A program made the position numbers and the translations under genes. From Pirellulaceae bacterium (GTDB lineage: Bacteria > Planctomycetota > Planctomycetia > Pirellulales > Pirellulaceae), in the NCBI GenBank assembly GCA_030744095.1, contig JASLRF010000477.1:1-8871 (forward strand): DNA of 8,871 nucleotides. Direction: 5' to 3'. Every line of letters starts with the position of its first letter. Position 1 is the first letter of the stretch. Below are positions 1-8,478 of this stretch, in pieces. The notes under the pieces were generated by a model that was given only the letters and a program-made list of their open reading frames with translations, made no database searches and was not told the DNA's origin.

Positions 1-1266
1 TTTCTTCAATTCGGCCTTGACCTTTGCGTATTGGGGGTCACTGGCCAGGTTGTTCCATTCGTAGACATCTTTGGTGATGGCGTACAGTTCCTCAGCGGGC
101 CGCCGATGGTACCTGCGGACTTTATCTGCCGCGTCGTCATCGCCTTGTTCTGCTTTGCGGACCCAAGACTGAAAGAGCGCCGATTTGCTGCAGGCGTTAG
201 TGAATCTTGTCTCCGGTGTGAAGTTGATAATGTATTTGTATTTCGCCGAGCGCACCGAACGGATACCGAAATGGGGTGATCCGTTAATGATGCCGCGCGT
301 CGTCATCTCGCCGAAGACATAGTCCTTATGATGATCCGACTGCCCGAAGAGAACGGGCAACAGACTCTTGCCCTGCAAAACGGGGTCGGGTGTCGCGCCG
401 GCGGCGGCAACGAACGTCGGCAGCACGTCGATATATTCGATTAGCGCGTCGCTAACAGAACCAGGCTTGATTTTACCGGGCCACCGAGCGATGCAGGCAC
501 TTTGCAGTCCGGTGTCATAACACGTCCACTTGGCGAAGGGCATCCCGGATCCTTGTTCGCTGACGACGATCACCAACGTGTTGTCAGTCAGGCCGTGCTT
601 CTCCAGCAACTCGAGGCACTGGCCAACCTGGCCGTCGTAGTACGTGATTTCCGCCAGGTATTTCGAGAGGTTGGAGCGCGTCTCCGGTGTGTCAACGAAG
701 TATGGTGGAAGTTTCAACGACGCAGGATCGTAGCGCGATGCATCACCCTTGTTCCAAGGACTGTGAGGTTCGTTGGAACAGGCGAACAGGCAAAAAGGAG
801 TCTCATCCCTACCACACTCGCCCAGAAGCTTGTCGATCGCGGCCATATCAGGATTGTTCTTGTCGGCCGAGGTTTCAAACGAAAAGATCGACTCGGGCGC
901 GATGTGCCGTTTGCCACTGAGCGCGACGCGATAGCCGAGCGGTTTGAGGTATTGGACAACGCTACGTGTGCCGTCGATGGCAAACGTATGATTCGGATAT
1001 GCGCCGCTCTTGACGGGGTACAAGCCGGTGTAAATGTTGTGTCGTGTGGGCGAACACATGGGTGCGGATTGAAAGCACTGGTTAAACAACATCCCTTCCG
1101 TCGCAAGTCGATCGATGTTGGGTGTGTGTGCTTGCCCGCCGTAACAACCGAGGTCACGGAACGTGCAATCATCAGCGATGATGAACAAGAAGTTGGGCCG
1201 CGATTCAACCGCGTGAAGTGTGCCGCCGAGCAAGATGATAAACAGTAATGAGATTCGGGCATTCAT
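1..1266 (-). CDS. Exported formylglycine-dependent S1-type sulfatase, sulfamidase-like (partial, C-terminus beyond window)
   Basis: Predicted to hydrolyse sulfate esters or N-sulfate groups, probably on a sulfated glycan, outside the cytoplasm. The frame is open from ATG at 1266 to the left edge (422 codons, no stop). Residues 1-19 form a Sec-type signal peptide ending in LHA. The mature part opens with RPNFLFIIADD, whose D32 and D33 are expected metal ligands. The sulfatase signature is C71-S-P-T-R75, with C71 the residue converted to formylglycine, followed by YTGLYP. G118-K-R-H121 matches the usual GKWH active-site segment, and NEPH puts a conserved His at 168. The second metal pair reads S-E237-Q238-G rather than the common D-N or D-H, followed by K246 in FAKWT. 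The C-terminal RRPAEELYAI and WNNLASDPQY match the family's usual end, so only about 30-80 residues should be missing. No clear Shine-Dalgarno precedes the ATG, but the signal peptide fits this start. The family is secure; the sulfamidase-like subgroup and the substrate are inference. Confidence 0.93.
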   Translation of the reverse strand, partial: MNARISLLFIILLGGTLHAVESRPNFLFIIADDCTFRDLGCYGGQAHTPNIDRLATEGMLFNQCFQSAPMCSPTRHNIYTGLYPVKSGAYPNHTFAIDGTRSVVQYLKPLGYRVALSGKRHIAPESIFSFETSADKNNPDMAAIDKLLGECGRDETPFCLFACSNEPHSPWNKGDASRYDPASLKLPPYFVDTPETRSNLSKYLAEITYYDGQVGQCLELLEKHGLTDNTLVIVVSEQGSGMPFAKWTCYDTGLQSACIARWPGKIKPGSVSDALIEYIDVLPTFVAAAGATPDPVLQGKSLLPVLFGQSDHHKDYVFGEMTTRGIINGSPHFGIRSVRSAKYKYIINFTPETRFTNACSKSALFQSWVRKAEQGDDDAADKVRRYHRRPAEELYAITKDVYEWNNLASDPQYAKVKAELKK

Positions 1267-1481
1267 GGGTGGACGGGTCTTTCGAGCGAGGATCAGGAAG
1301 TTACAAGGCGGCGCGGGCTTCCATCGCTTCAAGCCCAATACCGTTCAATGGTGTTGGCCAGGAAGGCGTCGGAAGTCTTTTTCGGGAAACGACATACGAT
1401 CGGCAGATGCCCGAAGGCCGAAAAAGACTCACGACCCTGTAACCAAGCCACATGAATTCTTTACAAGTTCAAAGTCTCAAA
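1267..1481. other. Intergenic spacer between amidohydrolase and sulfatase
   Basis: This 215-bp stretch shows no credible gene; the short plus-strand frames crossing it overlap the sulfatase and resemble nothing. It carries the 12-bp inverted repeat annotated separately. It also carries a smaller hairpin with arms 1335-1342 and 1350-1357, an 8-bp stem with one non-Watson-Crick pair (a G-U wobble in plus-strand RNA, a mismatch in minus-strand RNA) and a 7-nt loop. Neither hairpin is followed by a T run on either strand, so no standard intrinsic terminator is visible. The stretch next to the amidohydrolase stop (about 1440-1481) is more AT-rich than its surroundings and could hold a promoter for the sulfatase, but I could not make out a convincing -35/-10 pair. 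Confidence 0.6.
1374..1429. repeat. 12-bp perfect inverted repeat with 32-nt spacer and alternative internal pairings
   Basis: The arm AGTCTTTTTCGG (1374-1385) is the exact reverse complement of CCGAAAAAGACT (1418-1429). Inside it, TTCGGG (1381-1386) can instead pair with CCCGAA (1410-1415), and TCGGC (1400-1404) with GCCGA (1417-1421). In minus-strand RNA, bases 1418-1409 read GCC-UUCG-GGC, a small stem closed by a UUCG tetraloop. These pairings exclude one another in part, so the element could switch between folds. It lies about 50 nt past the amidohydrolase stop and about 110 nt before the sulfatase start. No U tract follows it in either direction, which argues against an ordinary terminator. 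Roles in mRNA processing, attenuation or protein binding are all possible and unproven. Confidence 0.6.
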
Positions 1482-2423
1482 TCAACTAAATCCCAGTAGG
1501 CGGCGAGCATTCTCGCGAAAGATCTTCTGCTCCACGTCAACGGGCAGCTTCAACAGCTGTTCGAATAACTCAAACTGCGGCACGTGTTGTTCTGGCGCTA
1601 GAAAATCGGTCCCGAACATGATTCGGTCCTGTCGACGAATGAGAAACTGCTGGCCAAACTCCAAATCACGAAGGATCGAATTGGCGCCACTGCCGGCCGA
1701 CAGTTCGCCATAGATGTTGGGGTATTTCTCCATCAGCCGATCGATCGCACCGCCAGCGGCGACCTTGCCTTTGGGATAACCCGCCAGCCCTGCCTGCGTG
1801 ATATCTCCAGATATGGAAGCCCACCAACCGGGACCGTGGCCAATGAACGTACCTTGCGGAGTCTCTTGGAGAACTTTTTCCAGCCCAGGCAATCCCGGCT
1901 TGTCCGTATTACGTTGATTGTCCAAATGAAACAGAACGGGCAGCTTGGCTTCCGCACACGCGGCGAAGAGACGAAGGTTGCGAGGATCATCGAAGGCGAT
2001 CCCCGGCTTATGTTCGCCAAAGCCCTTGGCGCCGACATCGACGTATCGTTTGAGCATGTCGACCAGTCCCTGGTGACCACCACGAAACGACGTGCGCGGA
2101 TCGATGGAACAGAACGGAATCAGTCGGTCGCGATGCGGTTTGGTTTCTGCCAATACAAAATCAGAGGTCAGCGGATAGCTGGACGATTCGGGTGAAATCA
2201 GCGGCAAGACGACGGCGCGGGCGATGCCATGGGCGTCCATCCACCGCAACAAGACCTCAGCGGTCAAAGTCTCGGTGCTGTTCCACGTCTGCCCCAAGTG
2301 CGTATGCATGTCGATATAGCCAGCCTCCGCGATGACTTCCGCCGATGCTGTGTGACCTGAAATGGCGCCAGCGGCAAGAGCCAGCATGGATTGTTGAAAC
2401 GAGCGACGCGTAAGGAGGGGCAT
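1482..2423 (-). CDS. Tat-exported metal-dependent amidohydrolase (Amidohydrolase_2 type TIM barrel)
   Basis: A complete 313-residue hydrolase of the amidohydrolase superfamily; family members hydrolyse or decarboxylate small cyclic or carboxylated substrates with one or two bound metal ions. Residues 1-28 form a twin-arginine signal, with T5-R-R-S-F9 followed by a hydrophobic stretch and a cleavage-like ASA at 26-28, so the folded, metal-loaded enzyme should be exported. The metal-binding series is in order: H40-T-H42 in DMHTHLG at the end of strand 1, H166 in LFHLDN, H196 in IGHGPGWW, and D273 in FGTDF. GEHK at 136-139 may add an active-site acid. The length is normal for the family. The ATG at 2423 is supported by an AGGA 7 nt upstream and by the Tat signal starting at once. 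It lies 52 bp after the stop of the giant repeat gene, so the two may be co-transcribed. The substrate cannot be deduced. Confidence 0.9.
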   Translation of the reverse strand: MPLLTRRSFQQSMLALAAGAISGHTASAEVIAEAGYIDMHTHLGQTWNSTETLTAEVLLRWMDAHGIARAVVLPLISPESSSYPLTSDFVLAETKPHRDRLIPFCSIDPRTSFRGGHQGLVDMLKRYVDVGAKGFGEHKPGIAFDDPRNLRLFAACAEAKLPVLFHLDNQRNTDKPGLPGLEKVLQETPQGTFIGHGPGWWASISGDITQAGLAGYPKGKVAAGGAIDRLMEKYPNIYGELSAGSGANSILRDLEFGQQFLIRRQDRIMFGTDFLAPEQHVPQFELFEQLLKLPVDVEQKIFRENARRLLGFS

Positions 2424-2475: not shown

Positions 2476-5400
2476 CTACGGCAACGGGTCGGAGATAAAC
2501 CGAGACAATTGTTCACGCAGCGCATCGCGATCGGGTGATAACTGTACGGCCCGTTTTGAATATCGAATGGCGGATTCCCGGTCACCTTGGCAAAAATGGA
2601 CCTCGGCCAGCGTGTCCAGATAGCTGCCATTGTGAGGTGCCAGTGCGACTGCCTTGGTGGCATGTTCGAACGCCACGTCGATGCGCCGACCGCAGCGGGC
2701 CGCCAGCCAAGCCAGATTGTTGTGCAAGTAGGCACTGTTAGGGAACCGTTTGCAATCTGCCTCGTAGCGGCTAAACAGTGTTTCGAACAGCTGATCGCCT
2801 TTGCCCGATTGCGACGCTCGATCGAACGCCGGAGTCAGTTCTTCGGCCAGGGTTGTATCGCCCGGCGTCAGCGCAGCCGCCAAGTTAATTGTGCGTGCCG
2901 CCGTTTCCAGGTCACCTGCTTCGACGGCCGCCAACGCTTGAAATCGATACACCTTGGTTGGAACGCGCAAATAACCTTCGTGCTCAAGCATATAATACAC
3001 GTTGCGCAAATCGCCCAGCATATAGTGCAGCCAACGTTTGGCCGCCAATGCGGGCTGATCGGGTTGGGCCAGCGCCAGGCGACGTGCCGCATCGTTCAGC
3101 TCCCAATGTTCGAAAGGAGCGGTCACTCGGAGAAACTTCCACTGGCGGATCGCCTCATGGAGCAACCCGCGTTCGGCCAGCGCGGACGCCATCGTGTGCC
3201 GCGCGCGGCTGTCTAGCGCCATCTCACTGGCCAGCTGTTTGTGGTGGGTGGCCTCGTCAACGCGACCAGCTTGTTGGTAGGCGTGTCCTGACAGATACAA
3301 TGCCGCCAGTTGTTCGTTGTCGTCCTCCCAGATTTGCTCGTAGAGGCGAGCGGCTTGCATTGCCTGACTCTGTTCGGCCAAGAGGTCGGCTCGCTGCATG
3401 GCTGCAGTGGAGTACGACCCTGCGGCCTGCAAGCAACGCATGGCGATAGCCGTCTCTCCCAGTCTGCGACAGGTCGTGGCGATTCCCAGCAGGTACGAGT
3501 TCCTCGACACATTGCTGATCGTTTCAGCGTAAACTTCGGCTTGTTTGGCGAGCCCAGAAAACTCGCCAGCGGCTCCAGTGGGTTGCGGATACAAGACTCG
3601 ATGCAGGCGACCCAGCGTGTCAGCAACCGACTCACTTGGTTGTTCAGCCCGCAAGAAACGCCACCAGGCGTTGGCCTCGACGGCACGCCGACCGTACACA
3701 CGTGTCAGCAACGCCGGAGAATAGTGTCGTGGCGACACCACCCGGGCACCGACCGTCCAGGCCTGTTGGTCTAGTCCCATGCGAAACAGCGATTGGCTAG
3801 TCAGCTCCCAATACGCGTTTGCTGGTGGCGTGGACTTGGTCGGTTTCGGCATCTCGTCCACGACCGACAGTAGCACCGCCAACAAGGCATCTCGGTTGTC
3901 CGTCTGGCCCAGCAGATCGAACACGCGCATGATGTGCAGTGCGAACTCGAATCGATCTAGTGTCTGAGCGTCTTCGTTGCCGCCGGTTCCGGGCAATCCG
4001 TCGAACCACACGCGATCCAGTTCAGCGTCGCGCGGCATTCCAATCAACTGCAATGCTTCGTCATAACGATGTTGAAACGTGTACAAGGTGAAGGCGCGCC
4101 GCGGATGTGTGTCGCAGAGAAATGCCAATGCCTGGTCCACGCAATCGTTCACCAACAGCGCTTCGGCACAGTGCCATGCCAACACGAGGTTCGTGGGATT
4201 CGCCTGTTGAAGTTGCTGAATCTTCTTGACGCTCTCCGCGAAGGCTGCCTGCTGCCCCGCCAACCGTTGGAATGTAGCCAAATAGCCCAGCGTTTCGATC
4301 TCCGGGTGGGCGGCCGCGCTGGTGCTATAGGTGATGATCGGGACAGGCAGAGGGCACTCGGACCCGGCCTGCAGTGCGGCGGCGTCTCCCCAGGCTTGAC
4401 GCTCCACCAAAATGGCTCTCAACAAGCCATCGTCGCCCAAACTGGTTGCCAGTTCTTGTGCCGCTGACAGGTCGCCTTGCGCACGCAACAGGTACAGCAG
4501 TTGACGCTGGTCGACTTTCTCTGGCTCGGTCTGCAGTTGTTGCTGCATGGAATCGACGCGAGCGTCCAACAAGTTGCGGGTGCTCAGATACACTGCCAGG
4601 CGAAGCCGACCGCGATCGTCATCGGCGTGCTCGACGAGAATCTCTTCCACGCGCTCGTATTCACCGCGCCGAATGTGCCATGACACAACACCTGCTGGAG
4701 CAAACAACAGCTGCTGTAGGTACCTCTTACGACGGACTTCGTCTTTTTCCATGGCGGCGAACTCACGGAGAAGGTCAGCCTTTCCCGCTTGTATTACACC
4801 TTGCCGGATTCGAGAAACGACCATCATCTGCCGCACAAACGACGACCGATTACTTTCCGTCTCCAGTTTGAAAAGCTTCAACAGCTCCTCAATGACGATC
4901 GGGTGTTTGAACAGGGCTCGACCTTCGGTACGGTAGAGGAAAGCTTGAATGCACTGACGACGGAGGCTGTCGTCCGCCTCTTCGATGACACTCTTGAAGA
5001 GTCGATCCAGCTGATTGGCACCCGCCAGGTAATCCAGTGAGGCCGGCGAGAACAGCAGGGTCGCCATCATCGATCGCCGCGTGCTGTCGTTGGATTCATG
5101 GCTGATATGTGTGAGCAAGAGATCAAAATGGCCATCTTTCAACAAGGCAGACAGCGCTTTGCGGGCATAGAGAATATTGCGTAGAAGATAACCTCGCCGA
5201 CTACTGGTTGTTTGGCCTATCGTCTCAATCAGCAGGTCGGTTTTTCCCGTAGTCGCCAGCCATTCGGCGCCGCTTTGGTTATTGGCCAGACGATTCAGCA
5301 AGGCCTTACGATGGTTGTCGTCAAGTCCCGTTTCGACCAATGTGATCAAGGGAGCCATTAGGTTGTGTTTCGACAATAGTCTCATCGACTCGGAACTGGT

Positions 5401-8400
5401 CAGCAAACGCTCCAGAATCGGTCGCAGCTTGGCTTGATCCGTCTCGGCCAAGACATCCGTCAACACCTTCTTCAAACGGTGCGTGCCGGCCAGGTAGGAA
5501 AGGATGTCCGGCGATGCCAACAGCTCTGACAATAGCGAACGTCGCTTGGCGTCATCCGGGTCCTCCAGGCAAAGAGTCATCAGCAAGTCAATTTGTTTTG
5601 ACTTGATCAGTGCCGTCACAACGGACTTGCTGCGGACAAGTTGCGTAAGCAGATTTCGACGCGCATCCACCGACGCTTCACTCTTGATGGTCTTGAGGAA
5701 GAAGTCGACGCGGTTGTTTCTAACCAATTGCTGTGTGGCCAAATCCAGGGCAAACAGCCGACCCAGTAGCGTGGCACGAAACGTCGCCTCCTTTTGACGC
5801 AGCGTGAGATCCAGCAAATCGTCGAAGAAGCCGTGATTGATCAGCAGAGTGAGCGCCGCTGAGTTATAAAACAGGCGCTGCAGGTAACTGGTTCGGCCAT
5901 TTCCGTCGATGCTTGTTTCAACCACCGCCAAGACCATCGACAACCGTTTCTGTGCAGCCAGATGTTCCAGGACTTTAGGGACAAGTAGTACCTGCCCGAG
6001 CAGTTGTTCGCGCCGGCTCCCGGTGGACTGATTGACCAGCTTCAAGAGCGAAGGGAGTAACCCGTTTTCGACCAATGCGGTGACGGTACCCGAACGGCTT
6101 AGTACATAAGTCAGCAGTTGCTCTCGCGAACTTGCATCGGGTTCTCGGGTAACGAGTTTCAGGACTGAGCCCAATTGTTCCTTGCTAGTCAGATGCTTGA
6201 CGACCGCTGGAGATCCCAGGATCGCGCCCATCAACGAGGCGCGAATCGAAGGGTGCTTCTCTGCACTGGCTAACGCCAGCAACGTCTCAAAATGACCATT
6301 TTTGACCAAGGCCCCGATGGCTTCCTGGTTGTAGCAAAGACGCTGCAAGAATTGTCGCCGGACGTTGGTGTCCTTCTGGGACTTGGCAAAGGTGATCAGC
6401 GAATCGATCTGTTTTGCGGCAATCAACGCGGTGACGACTTTGGAGGCCGTATAGAAATCAGCCAGCAAGGCGGCTCGGCGAGTGGATTGTTCGGTCTTCT
6501 TGGCTAGTTCAAGTAGCTTGTCGAAGTGGCCGGCGTCGATCAGCGCCCCCAGGCCGACATGGTTACGGTACAGTCGCTGCAAGAAAGCATGTTGGGCGTC
6601 TTTATTTTCCTCTTGCGTGGCCAATTCGATAAGCGAGTCCAATTCACCTCTCTTCTTCAGTTGTTCGATCACCGGCCGCGTCCGCACAAACTCGCCATAC
6701 AGAATCGCCCGATCGACAGCGTCTTCGGAGGCGTTAGCGAGCTTTGCCAACGCCTCATAATGCCCATGCTTGATCAGCTCCGTCATGGCCCAGTGATTAC
6801 GAAACAACCCTGTCACAAACTCTGTTCGCGCATTGGCATTAGTAAACTCGGTGGCTAACGCGATCAGCTGGGCTGTCTTCTCTTTGGTTCTGAAGAACTT
6901 GGCCGCGTCCGACGAAGAAATCAAACGCGTCAACAACTGGCCACGGACCGCTTCCGGTTCGATCTTGACCAGCTCGAAGAGTTTGTCGAAATGACCTAGC
7001 TCTAACAACTTACGCCGAAGCGAATAGTTGTTGACCATGGCGGCCAGTAATTGGCCTCGATCTTTGAGTTGCTCTTCGTCAACCAACCACTTAAAGAGCC
7101 AATCGGTTTCTTTCGGATCGTCCAACAACTGAGTGATGCGAGACGTGGCCAGCATGCGCGAAATCGCCACCGTCCGCCAATGGCGGTCAGGATCCGACTT
7201 GACCAGGCTCCACAAAGTATGGAGAGTCGCTTGTGACTTGATCGAATAGAGGATATTGCCGTATTGAAACAGCCGATCCAAGTAAGCACGCCGCGCCACC
7301 AGATCTGTTTCATTTTTTGCCAGTGTGACAAATAACTCATCCTTGCCGTTGGCAGTCACATGCTTACGCATGTCACTTGACATCATCAAATTGGCTAGCA
7401 ATTCACCACGGCTGTGTGGATCCTGTTCTTCGGAGACCATCGCGATGAGGGCGTCGAATCCAGGATCTTCCAGTAACCTCGCGACAACATTGCGCGTACG
7501 AAACAGCTGTTCCAAAATCTTCTTGTGCACCATCGAATCGGAATGTTCTTTGGCGAATGCAAGCACTTGGTCAAGTTTGCCTCGCTCCAGGACCGCGGCA
7601 ATGGCTTCCGGCGCAGCCAACAGCGCCAGCAACAGCTCGCCACGAACCGCCTTGTCTTCTTCCGCCATCAGTGCGGTAAAAGCGAAGTCGAGTTGATTGT
7701 TCTTGATCAGCGCCGCCACGGACCCAGGTGTTTGGAGCACGGTCAGCAACAGCTGCTTGCGCACCTGGGCATCGTCTTCCTTTTGAATAAACTTTAGCAG
7801 CGTGTCGAGACTGCCTGTCTCGATCAGCCGAGTCAGCATCTTGGGAGCGGACAGCACACGTGCCATCATCGTGCGCCTCCACTGTTCATTCTGGTCAGCA
7901 CCGACTGTTTTGATCAGTGTCTCAACTCGATCCAATTCGATGAACCGTTCGATTGCGTTGGAGTCACTAAACAACTTGACGAGCAAAGCGCGGCGAATGT
8001 TGGCATCGCGTTCCAGCAGTAGCAAACGTTCGACCATGTCAAAGCGTTGACGCGACAACAGTTGGGCAAATGCGTTCTGGCGCTGGCTGGGATCGCCTTC
8101 GCGAAATTGGTGGATCCATACCAAGATATTGGCCGGCACACCCGGTATGATACCGAAGTCGAAATCGCTCAGAATCCTCTTCGCGCGAGTTCGGACTTCG
8201 CGGTCGCGGCTCGTAACGGCTTTGCGGAGCGCCGGTTCAGCGGCGAGGCCCATTCGCCAAAGTTGTTGCGAGGCCATTTTGCGCACGACAAATCGATCGC
8301 TCCCCAGATCCGCAATCGCGCGATCGATCAGCGCCTGCGTTTCAACGACCGGTTCGGCACCGCCCCGTCCGATGGCGTCTGGTTCGATGGCAGCTGGCTG

Positions 8401-8478
8401 ACCGATCAATGCCGTGGAAATGACTACGGTCGCGAAAAGGGCAGACATCCGCGCTCTCCCGCTAATAATGGCCCACAC
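2476..8478 (-). CDS. Giant exported alpha-solenoid protein: HEAT-like segment, about 29 tandem 39-residue repeats, C-terminal TPRs
   Basis: I do not recognise a named homologue; the role is best described as an extracytoplasmic scaffold or binding protein. It has 2000 residues (roughly 220 kDa). Residues 1-30 contain two Arg (8, 10) and a hydrophobic stretch (11-26), which fits a Sec signal or an N-terminal anchor. Residues 46-103 form a HEAT-like segment (LGSDRFVVRKMASQQLWRMG). A linker follows (104-138). Residues 139-1265 are the tandem array described separately, trailing into a degenerate copy at 1266-1305. From about 1310 the sequence becomes TPR-like, clearest at 1724-1755, 1758-1787, 1840-1873 and in the final pair 1914-1948 and 1949-1982, which has NNLAWLAARCG and YLDTLAEVHFCQGD. 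No catalytic motif, CxxCH haem site or further membrane segment is visible. The longest frame starts at GTG 8478 (no clear Shine-Dalgarno). ATG 8448 (residue 11) has GGGAGA 6 nt upstream but would leave the signal without its positive charges. The frame is intact throughout and first in the minus-strand cluster. Confidence 0.93.
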   Translation of the reverse strand: MWAIISGRARMSALFATVVISTALIGQPAAIEPDAIGRGGAEPVVETQALIDRAIADLGSDRFVVRKMASQQLWRMGLAAEPALRKAVTSRDREVRTRAKRILSDFDFGIIPGVPANILVWIHQFREGDPSQRQNAFAQLLSRQRFDMVERLLLLERDANIRRALLVKLFSDSNAIERFIELDRVETLIKTVGADQNEQWRRTMMARVLSAPKMLTRLIETGSLDTLLKFIQKEDDAQVRKQLLLTVLQTPGSVAALIKNNQLDFAFTALMAEEDKAVRGELLLALLAAPEAIAAVLERGKLDQVLAFAKEHSDSMVHKKILEQLFRTRNVVARLLEDPGFDALIAMVSEEQDPHSRGELLANLMMSSDMRKHVTANGKDELFVTLAKNETDLVARRAYLDRLFQYGNILYSIKSQATLHTLWSLVKSDPDRHWRTVAISRMLATSRITQLLDDPKETDWLFKWLVDEEQLKDRGQLLAAMVNNYSLRRKLLELGHFDKLFELVKIEPEAVRGQLLTRLISSSDAAKFFRTKEKTAQLIALATEFTNANARTEFVTGLFRNHWAMTELIKHGHYEALAKLANASEDAVDRAILYGEFVRTRPVIEQLKKRGELDSLIELATQEENKDAQHAFLQRLYRNHVGLGALIDAGHFDKLLELAKKTEQSTRRAALLADFYTASKVVTALIAAKQIDSLITFAKSQKDTNVRRQFLQRLCYNQEAIGALVKNGHFETLLALASAEKHPSIRASLMGAILGSPAVVKHLTSKEQLGSVLKLVTREPDASSREQLLTYVLSRSGTVTALVENGLLPSLLKLVNQSTGSRREQLLGQVLLVPKVLEHLAAQKRLSMVLAVVETSIDGNGRTSYLQRLFYNSAALTLLINHGFFDDLLDLTLRQKEATFRATLLGRLFALDLATQQLVRNNRVDFFLKTIKSEASVDARRNLLTQLVRSKSVVTALIKSKQIDLLMTLCLEDPDDAKRRSLLSELLASPDILSYLAGTHRLKKVLTDVLAETDQAKLRPILERLLTSSESMRLLSKHNLMAPLITLVETGLDDNHRKALLNRLANNQSGAEWLATTGKTDLLIETIGQTTSSRRGYLLRNILYARKALSALLKDGHFDLLLTHISHESNDSTRRSMMATLLFSPASLDYLAGANQLDRLFKSVIEEADDSLRRQCIQAFLYRTEGRALFKHPIVIEELLKLFKLETESNRSSFVRQMMVVSRIRQGVIQAGKADLLREFAAMEKDEVRRKRYLQQLLFAPAGVVSWHIRRGEYERVEEILVEHADDDRGRLRLAVYLSTRNLLDARVDSMQQQLQTEPEKVDQRQLLYLLRAQGDLSAAQELATSLGDDGLLRAILVERQAWGDAAALQAGSECPLPVPIITYSTSAAAHPEIETLGYLATFQRLAGQQAAFAESVKKIQQLQQANPTNLVLAWHCAEALLVNDCVDQALAFLCDTHPRRAFTLYTFQHRYDEALQLIGMPRDAELDRVWFDGLPGTGGNEDAQTLDRFEFALHIMRVFDLLGQTDNRDALLAVLLSVVDEMPKPTKSTPPANAYWELTSQSLFRMGLDQQAWTVGARVVSPRHYSPALLTRVYGRRAVEANAWWRFLRAEQPSESVADTLGRLHRVLYPQPTGAAGEFSGLAKQAEVYAETISNVSRNSYLLGIATTCRRLGETAIAMRCLQAAGSYSTAAMQRADLLAEQSQAMQAARLYEQIWEDDNEQLAALYLSGHAYQQAGRVDEATHHKQLASEMALDSRARHTMASALAERGLLHEAIRQWKFLRVTAPFEHWELNDAARRLALAQPDQPALAAKRWLHYMLGDLRNVYYMLEHEGYLRVPTKVYRFQALAAVEAGDLETAARTINLAAALTPGDTTLAEELTPAFDRASQSGKGDQLFETLFSRYEADCKRFPNSAYLHNNLAWLAARCGRRIDVAFEHATKAVALAPHNGSYLDTLAEVHFCQGDRESAIRYSKRAVQLSPDRDALREQLSRFISDPLP
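4684..8064 (-). repeat. Array of about 29 tandem coding repeats of 39 residues (117 bp), HEAT-like helical units
   Basis: Aligning residues 139-1265 by eye gives 29 consecutive units: 23 of exactly 39 residues, five of 38 and one of 40. The shared pattern is roughly ALIKNGHFDxLLxLAxxExD, then xxRRxLLxRLLxSPxAVx. This suggests a short helix ending in a G/N-rich turn, a second helix (FDxLLxLA), an acidic loop, and a third helix carrying a near-invariant Arg and two or three Leu. The Leu-Leu/acidic-loop/Arg arrangement is like helix A-loop-helix B of HEAT repeats, but the spacing between units and the strict 39-residue phase are distinctive. Clear members are residues 684-722, 723-761, 956-994 and 1111-1149. 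The DNA copies have diverged strongly, with only short shared words such as CGCTGCAAGAA (plus strand, in two copies), so the array is old and maintained at protein level. Confidence 0.88.
8455..8460 (-). promoter_or_regulatory. Possible ribosome binding site favouring the internal ATG start of the giant solenoid gene
   Basis: GGGAGA on the minus strand lies 6 nt upstream of the ATG at 8448, which is codon 11 of the longest frame. No comparable purine stretch precedes the GTG at 8478, and another ATG at 8480 is in a different frame. The choice is not settled, because the GTG start adds the R-x-R charges that a signal peptide normally needs. The two products would have 2000 or 1990 residues. 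Confidence 0.4.

What the first reader, a model, noticed from the sequence alone, without database searches (positions are those of the whole stretch)
4684..8064. Giant exported solenoid built from about 29 tandem 39-residue repeats of a type I cannot name
Seen directly: residues 139-1265 form an almost unbroken array with 23 of 29 units exactly 39 residues long, a conserved Arg in the last helix, hydrophobic FDxLLxLA and RRxLLxRLL helices and a frequent GHFD turn. Known: HEAT repeats vary between about 37 and 47 residues, ARM repeats are about 42 and TPRs 34. A regular 39-residue unit with three short helical parts fits none of these exactly. Inference: a long superhelical scaffold, tens of nanometres if fully extended, acting in the periplasm or at the cell surface, with TPRs at one end as a partner-binding module. 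It could be a distinct planctomycete-specific solenoid family.
Basis: partly seen in the sequence, partly recalled or inferred. Interest (0 to 1): 0.72.

Follow-up and report, generated by a model that had tools for sequence, protein, structure and literature searches.

The report
Giant 30-unit armadillo-type planctomycete solenoid
A planctomycete bacterium encodes a roughly 2,000-residue, probably exported protein whose middle is a rod of about 30 units of 39 residues that look like slightly shortened armadillo repeats; the family is not named in the databases checked, but the kind of fold is known.

Summary
The repeat array is real. In the minus-strand ORF 8478..2476, self-similarity peaks at lags 39 and 78 (z 20.2, 19.6); an independent segmentation finds 30 units, 23 of 29 spacings exactly 39. 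The unit can be named: AlphaFold2 predicts three helices per unit (pLDDT 87; 93 for an 8-unit piece), Foldseek's 23 hits at E<=0.001 for that piece include 15 titled armadillo, importin-alpha or Vac8, and a unit profile matches an armadillo consensus (80%, E 1.3e-5) but not HEAT, TPR or PPR consensuses (at most 2.3%). VIA-align does not separate armadillo from HEAT. So: an armadillo-type unit two to three residues short, not a new fold; no Pfam or NCBIfam model reaches its cutoff in the window's array. Beyond the finding: a two-unit superperiod, duplication of 10-11-unit blocks in longer relatives, a short paralogue without the array in six of eight genomes, and a better conserved H3 than H2 face within, not between, clades. 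Groove binding and export are inferred, not shown.

The parts
2476..8448 (-). coding sequence of the giant repeat protein, ATG start (1990 aa; the ORF can be read from GTG at 8478 as 2000 aa; residue numbers below count from that GTG)
   Evidence: start from conserved GGGAG/ATG and P0002 length
8398..8448 (-). short hydrophobic N-terminus ending in Gly-Gln (residues 11-27), signal-peptide-like but without basic residues
   Evidence: Q27 invariant, G26 nearly invariant in A2; hydropathy
8158..8349 (-). N-terminal HEAT-like module (residues 44-107), shared with the short paralogues
   Evidence: (PF13646 HEAT_2 59-106, E 0.011, below cutoff)
4558..8058 (-). array of 30 armadillo-type 39-residue units (residues 141-1307)
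   Evidence: periodicity, segmentation; three helices per unit; armadillo type
5839..6774 (-). units 12-19 (residues 569-880), the 8-unit piece modelled alone (pLDDT 93.1, pTM 0.85)
2479..4557 (-). C-terminal region (residues 1308-2000), shared with the short paralogues; clearest TPR at residues 1953-1983
   Evidence: (TPR_2 31.1 bits against cutoff 27 for residues 1270-2000); not modelled

Best explanation
The protein is a probably exported scaffold made of a small N-terminal HEAT-like cap, about 30 tandem armadillo-type units shortened to 39 residues, and a C-terminal TPR domain. Each unit has helices H1 (about 9 residues), H2 (about 9) and H3 (12-13); stacked units should form a superhelical rod with H3 lining the inner groove. 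Most likely the groove binds an extended partner (a peptide or another linear polymer) and the TPR end docks a second protein, so that the rod works as a long tether or organiser in the periplasm or at the cell surface. The array grew inside a cap-plus-TPR protein, still seen as a short paralogue, and was lengthened in some lineages by duplication of 10-11-unit blocks. Shown by computation: the repeats, the predicted three-helix units, armadillo-type profile similarity, block duplications, the paralogue, and the within-clade conservation contrast. Inferred: export, superhelix geometry, groove binding, docking, and that the short form is the older one.
For: Repeats. Three helices per unit, occupancy at least 0.9 in the middle of each helix over 30 units. 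Fold: models at pLDDT 87 and 93; Foldseek's 23 hits at E<=0.001 for the 8-unit piece are 12 designed armadillo chains, 2 importin-alpha, 1 Vac8, 3 chains of engineered protein 4rv1, and 5 chains of ciliary assemblies whose titles do not name the subunit. Profile: 50 four-unit family segments against a typed 41-residue armadillo consensus in tandem give 80.4%, E 1.3e-5; reversed 0.1%; best of 60 shuffled units 3.6%; HEAT-type 0.1-2.3%, TPR 0.15%, PPR 1.8%. A family profile matched engineered protein OR329 (4hxt, an armadillo design as I recall) over its array positions, E 2.4e-7. Column 4, between H1 and H2, is most often Gly (38%). Groove: polar H3 columns 23, 24, 27, 28, 31 are more conserved than polar H2 columns in the window's clade (0.74 against 0.45, p=7e-5, P0001-P0006; four pairs, largest p 0.0032) and in two pairs of other clades not used to choose the columns (P0012-P0013 p=0.024; P0009-P0010 p=0.009). 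Evolution.
Confidence: 0.5

Rival explanations
1. The array is a passive spacer or elastic spring that sets a distance between the cap and the TPR domain; length matters and the groove binds nothing in particular.
For: Array length varies widely, 22 to 49 detectable units in the closer long forms, partly through blocks of 10-11 units, while the end domains are kept in most; exposed H3 residues are not better conserved than H2 between clades.
Against: Within three clades the exposed H3 face is better conserved than the exposed H2 face; four close relatives, P0003-P0006, keep 30 units with the same 29 spacings in the same order, and for P0006 30 of 30 units best match the same unit of the window.
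Confidence: 0.25
2. It is a HEAT-repeat protein with divergent units rather than an armadillo-type one.
Against: Three separate helices per unit in the models; armadillo consensus 80% against at most 2.3% for three HEAT-type consensuses; among the 50 Foldseek rows listed for the 8-unit model no title names a known HEAT protein, though several ciliary chains are unnamed.
Confidence: 0.15
3. It is a relative of the PVC membrane-coat-like proteins and shapes membranes.
For: A planctomycete alpha-solenoid; such proteins exist in this superphylum (PMC2799638, passages).
Against: That architecture needs an N-terminal beta-propeller; here no strand is predicted in residues 117-1316, the stretch before is a HEAT-like module, and no propeller family matched at E<=1.
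Confidence: 0.05

Closest known systems
Armadillo (ARM) repeat proteins: designed ARM proteins, importin-alpha, Vac8
   Different: Unit 39 rather than about 42 residues (recalled), shorter H3, Arg favoured at column 22, 22-49 units in one chain, bacterial and probably exported, not matched by Pfam Arm at its cutoff in the window's protein
HEAT-repeat proteins (karyopherin-beta types, CAND1, Importin-4)
   Same: All-helical solenoids of the same broad ARM/HEAT class; similar VIA-align Z; Asp/Arg pair near the start of the last helix (HEAT side recalled)
   Different: HEAT units have two helices; HEAT-type consensus tandems do not match the profile
Toxoplasma glideosome-associated connector (8bt6, 8c4a)
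   Same: A single very long chain, among the four best Foldseek matches of the whole array
   Different: Eukaryotic; 13% identity in the alignments; its domain make-up was not examined here
PVC membrane-coat-like proteins (PMC2799638, passages)
   Same: Planctomycete alpha-solenoid
   Different: No N-terminal beta-propeller here

Membership tests
Armadillo repeat fold | three helices (H1, H2, H3) in each unit | tested here: met
   DSSP of the predicted model over 30 units
Armadillo repeat fold | best structural neighbours are armadillo proteins | tested here: met
   Foldseek, 8-unit model: 15 of 23 hits at E<=0.001 titled armadillo, importin-alpha or Vac8, the other 8 unnamed by title; but VIA-align ties ARM and HEAT
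Armadillo repeat fold | sequence profile similarity to armadillo | tested here: met
   hhalign 80.4%, E 1.3e-5 with controls; the armadillo consensus was typed from recall as a single sequence of 41-residue units
Armadillo repeat fold | unit of about 42 residues | tested here: inconclusive
   39 residues; the spread of natural armadillo lengths is recalled, not tested
Armadillo repeat fold | right-handed superhelix with H3 lining the groove | not testable with these tools
   model coordinates are not returned
Pfam Arm PF00514 | match at the curated cutoff | tested here: not met
   window protein: no Arm match at E<=1 or, for residues 117-1316, at E<=0.1; 1 of 15 members at E 0.014
HEAT repeats | two-helix units | tested here: not met
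   three helices per unit in the predicted model
TPR proteins | TPR motifs in the C-terminal region | tested here: met
   TPR_2 31.1 bits against cutoff 27, TPR_14 24.2 against 23.5, for residues 1270-2000; just below cutoff when the full protein is scanned
PVC membrane-coat-like proteins | N-terminal beta-propeller followed by alpha-solenoid | tested here: not met
   no strands in residues 117-1316, no propeller family at E<=1; definition from passages of PMC2799638

The most novel reading that the evidence does not exclude
A bacterial, cell-envelope armadillo ruler: an exported rod of 22-49 short armadillo units, built partly in two-unit steps and lengthened in blocks of 10-11 units (perhaps one superhelical turn), that binds a clade-specific linear polymer or peptide along its groove and sets a distance or register in the envelope.
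Probability: 0.2. Interest if true: 0.65.

Novelty: new variant of a known kind. Interest (0 to 1): 0.42.

Why it matters
Long armadillo arrays are known mainly from eukaryotes (recalled). A bacterial family with 22-49 shortened units, not recognised by Pfam or NCBIfam in the window's array, adds a natural test of how armadillo arrays grow: the same two end domains exist with and without the array, both forms in six of eight genomes, and block duplications can be read directly. It also supplies a repeat model that could improve annotation of planctomycete proteins, a group already reported to be rich in alpha-solenoids (PMC3837014, passages).

Tried and rejected
Pfam, NCBIfam and PADLOC: in the window's array no family reaches its cutoff and PADLOC gives nothing at E<=0.001; weak sub-cutoff matches in the array included TPR_Vps41 (E 0.0007), a phage tail tube family, SGS and ribosomal L17. 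A five-fold consensus tandem against PDB sequences and Pfam gave hits to designed PPR proteins and assorted families, two above their Pfam cutoffs (CysG_dimeriser 34.9 against 23, Pas_Saposin 28 against 27.5), with almost no stretch significant on its own; an idealised tandem inflates such sums, so I judged them uninformative. An alignment of overlapping four-unit segments failed because MAFFT aligned the identical overlaps. BLAST of each protein against itself returned no off-diagonal pieces; an offset scan replaced it. The idea that array length steps exactly by ten units is not upheld: 30, 39-40 and 49 fit, but 45 (L044), 22 (the L006 copy) and 26-27 (P0014, cut short) do not. In the most divergent long forms the unit model finds only part of the array: 8 units in L045-L047, 5 in L049, 14 in L050, 23 in L048, 4 in P0015, and retraining did not extend it in the three tried. 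Neighbourhood as a clue to function: the window's neighbours recur only in L001 and L002, of the loci looked at. Rfam at gathering scores: nothing. Plasmids: nothing. The DNA copies are not recent: identity 0.36 at lags 117 and 234 against 0.26 at other lags.

Rows dropped: in the tree, four partial or duplicate rows of the 43 were left out (L003_0, L012_0, L013_0, L056_0), so P0009 is represented only by P0010; P0014, which lacks the domain, is not in it; L041 was labelled long because it is a piece of the 1,934-residue ORF of L050. The conservation columns were chosen after seeing on the window's clade. Only four of the six short paralogues were examined for units.
Full report
What is there. 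The finding lies in a minus-strand ORF, 8478..2476. A conserved GGGAG followed by ATG in L001 and L002, and the 1,990-residue public copy P0002, put the start at 8448. Residue numbers here count from the upstream GTG. The protein has a hydrophobic N-terminus ending in Gly-Gln (G26 nearly invariant, Q27 invariant in the ten-sequence alignment A2), a HEAT-like module at about 44-107 (HEAT_2, E 0.011, below its cutoff), the repeat array at 141-1307, and a TPR region to the end (TPR_2 31.1 bits against cutoff 27 when residues 1270-2000 are scanned alone).

Is the array more than chance? Yes. Residues 139-1265 match themselves at lag 39 with z=20.2 and at lag 78 with z=19.6 over 300 shuffles, while residues 1266-2000 reach only 3.2, at lag 45. 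An iterated 39-column model finds 30 units; 23 of 29 spacings are 39, and with a model trained on eight family members 24 of 29. Shuffled sequences score at most 2.5 against 1324.

Relatives. A search of 5.8 billion proteins, of which 7,987 candidates were scored, returned 14 at E<=0.001, one of them the window's own copy. P0003-P0006 have 30 units with the same 29 spacings in the same order as the window; P0012 has 30 and P0013 29 or 30 by the two models, P0011 39, P0009 and P0010 40, P0007 47 or 49, and P0014, which ends before the TPR region, 26 or 27. A scan of one genome per species gave nine loci, eight of them true relatives; two of those are titled only 'bacterium', the rest Planctomycetota, and L009 matched only in the TPR part. 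With an alignment of the cap plus the first units, array-spanning matches (E below 1e-40, more than 300 of 415 positions) occur in 10 of 396 genomes of the order of G002, and among 392 genomes drawn from its phylum only in G002 itself; any match at E<=1e-12, which includes the HEAT-like cap alone, occurs in 85 of 396 and 28 of 392. At most four candidates per genome were scored, so these are lower bounds. More distant long forms keep the rhythm: lag 39 is best in L045, L046, L048, L049 and L050 (z 3.7-6.9) and lag 78 in P0015 of Rubripirellula lacrimiformis (z 3.5), although the unit model itself picks up only 4-23 units in them.

How the array evolved. In the window protein, units two apart are more alike than neighbours (mean BLOSUM 25.1 at distance two, 14.7 at one, 14.9 at three); the same alternation shows in P0011 and P0012 but is weak in P0007 and P0009. 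So the building step was partly a two-unit module. In longer relatives the strongest self-matches are at larger offsets: P0007 at 384 residues over 751 residues (34% identity, about 10 units) and at 768; P0009 and P0010 at 423 (36% and 30%, about 11 units). P0011 has a 390-residue offset at 30% identity, third in score behind 78 and 39; L044, with 45 units, shows no such block among its 12 best offsets. Blocks of 10-11 units were thus duplicated in more than one lineage. Units of P0006 best match the same unit of the window in 30 of 30 cases, P0012 in 20 of 30 and P0013 in 19 of 30, so the 30-unit layout is probably older than those splits.

The short paralogue. Six of the eight genomes that hold a long form also hold a protein with an open frame of 914-987 residues that matches mainly the cap and the TPR region (G001-G005 and G008). 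Of four examined, two (S22, S23) carry one recognisable unit with scores of 10.5 and 11.7; S21 and S24 none. On a tree of the C-terminal domain (39 rows) long and short forms part at one branch (100/99) with one exception, L043, which sits on a very long branch; the tool warns of long branches and 12 of 36 inner branches are weak. The simplest reading, that the array arose once inside a cap-plus-TPR protein, is an inference; loss in the short lineage is not excluded, since the root was placed only for drawing.

Mechanism. In armadillo proteins H3 lines the inner groove and extended peptides bind there (recalled). Exposed H3 columns are better conserved than exposed H2 columns in the window's clade (0.74 against 0.45 between P0001 and P0006, p=7e-5), and in the P0012-P0013 and P0009-P0010 pairs (p=0.024 and 0.009), which were not used to choose the columns. 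Between clades the contrast vanishes (p=0.51 and 0.55), and H3 against H1 is weaker or not significant. 'Exposed' means polar on average, not measured exposure. This fits a groove that binds a partner which differs between clades, but packing of H3 against its neighbours is an alternative that I could not separate without coordinates. Export rests on the hydrophobic N-terminus; in the window's protein and its close kin it lacks preceding basic residues, unlike the short paralogue P0016 and the distant long form P0015, so it needs an experiment.

Context. Downstream of the gene lie an amidohydrolase (PF04909) and a sulfatase (PF00884); ORFs that look alike by eye follow in the same order in L001 and L002, and a PhoD-like phosphatase precedes the gene in both. 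Other long forms that I looked at have different neighbours, L004 and L005 sharing theirs with each other. No function can be read from context.

Novelty. Fournier and colleagues (PMC3837014, passages read) reported that Planctomycetes are rich in alpha-solenoids, including uncharacterised ones. Paper searches joining planctomycetes with HEAT, TPR or armadillo repeats, or armadillo repeats with 39 residues or prokaryotes, listed no title or abstract on this family; for these searches only listings were seen apart from passages of PMC3837014, and the library lacks most subscription journals. I rate it a new variant of a known kind: a new armadillo-type unit and family, not a new fold.

Noticed in passing
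window 1482-2423 and 1-1338 (minus strand): An Amidohydro_2 protein and a sulfatase lie directly downstream; ORFs that look alike by eye follow in the same order in L001 and L002, with a PhoD-like phosphatase upstream there.
   Followed up: partly
L021:748-3657 and L024:814-3654: The short paralogue lies beside an ORF that looks like the RNA polymerase beta-prime subunit (recognised by eye, not tested), on the opposite strand.
   Followed up: no
L008 and L005: Two copies of the long form look damaged or cut short: in G008 the match is split over several frames with a TAG inside one piece; in G005 the frame ends after 1,244 residues without the TPR region.
   Followed up: no
window 2476-8448, residues 492-530, 764-802, 1036-1074: The three 38-residue spacings recur every seven units (after units 10, 17 and 24) in the window and in P0003-P0006, a second, longer rhythm that I cannot explain.
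   Followed up: no
L004 and L005: Two long forms share look-alike neighbours by eye: upstream oxidoreductase and enoyl-reductase genes and a downstream PSCyt2/PSD1 protein, families tested in L004 only.
   Followed up: partly
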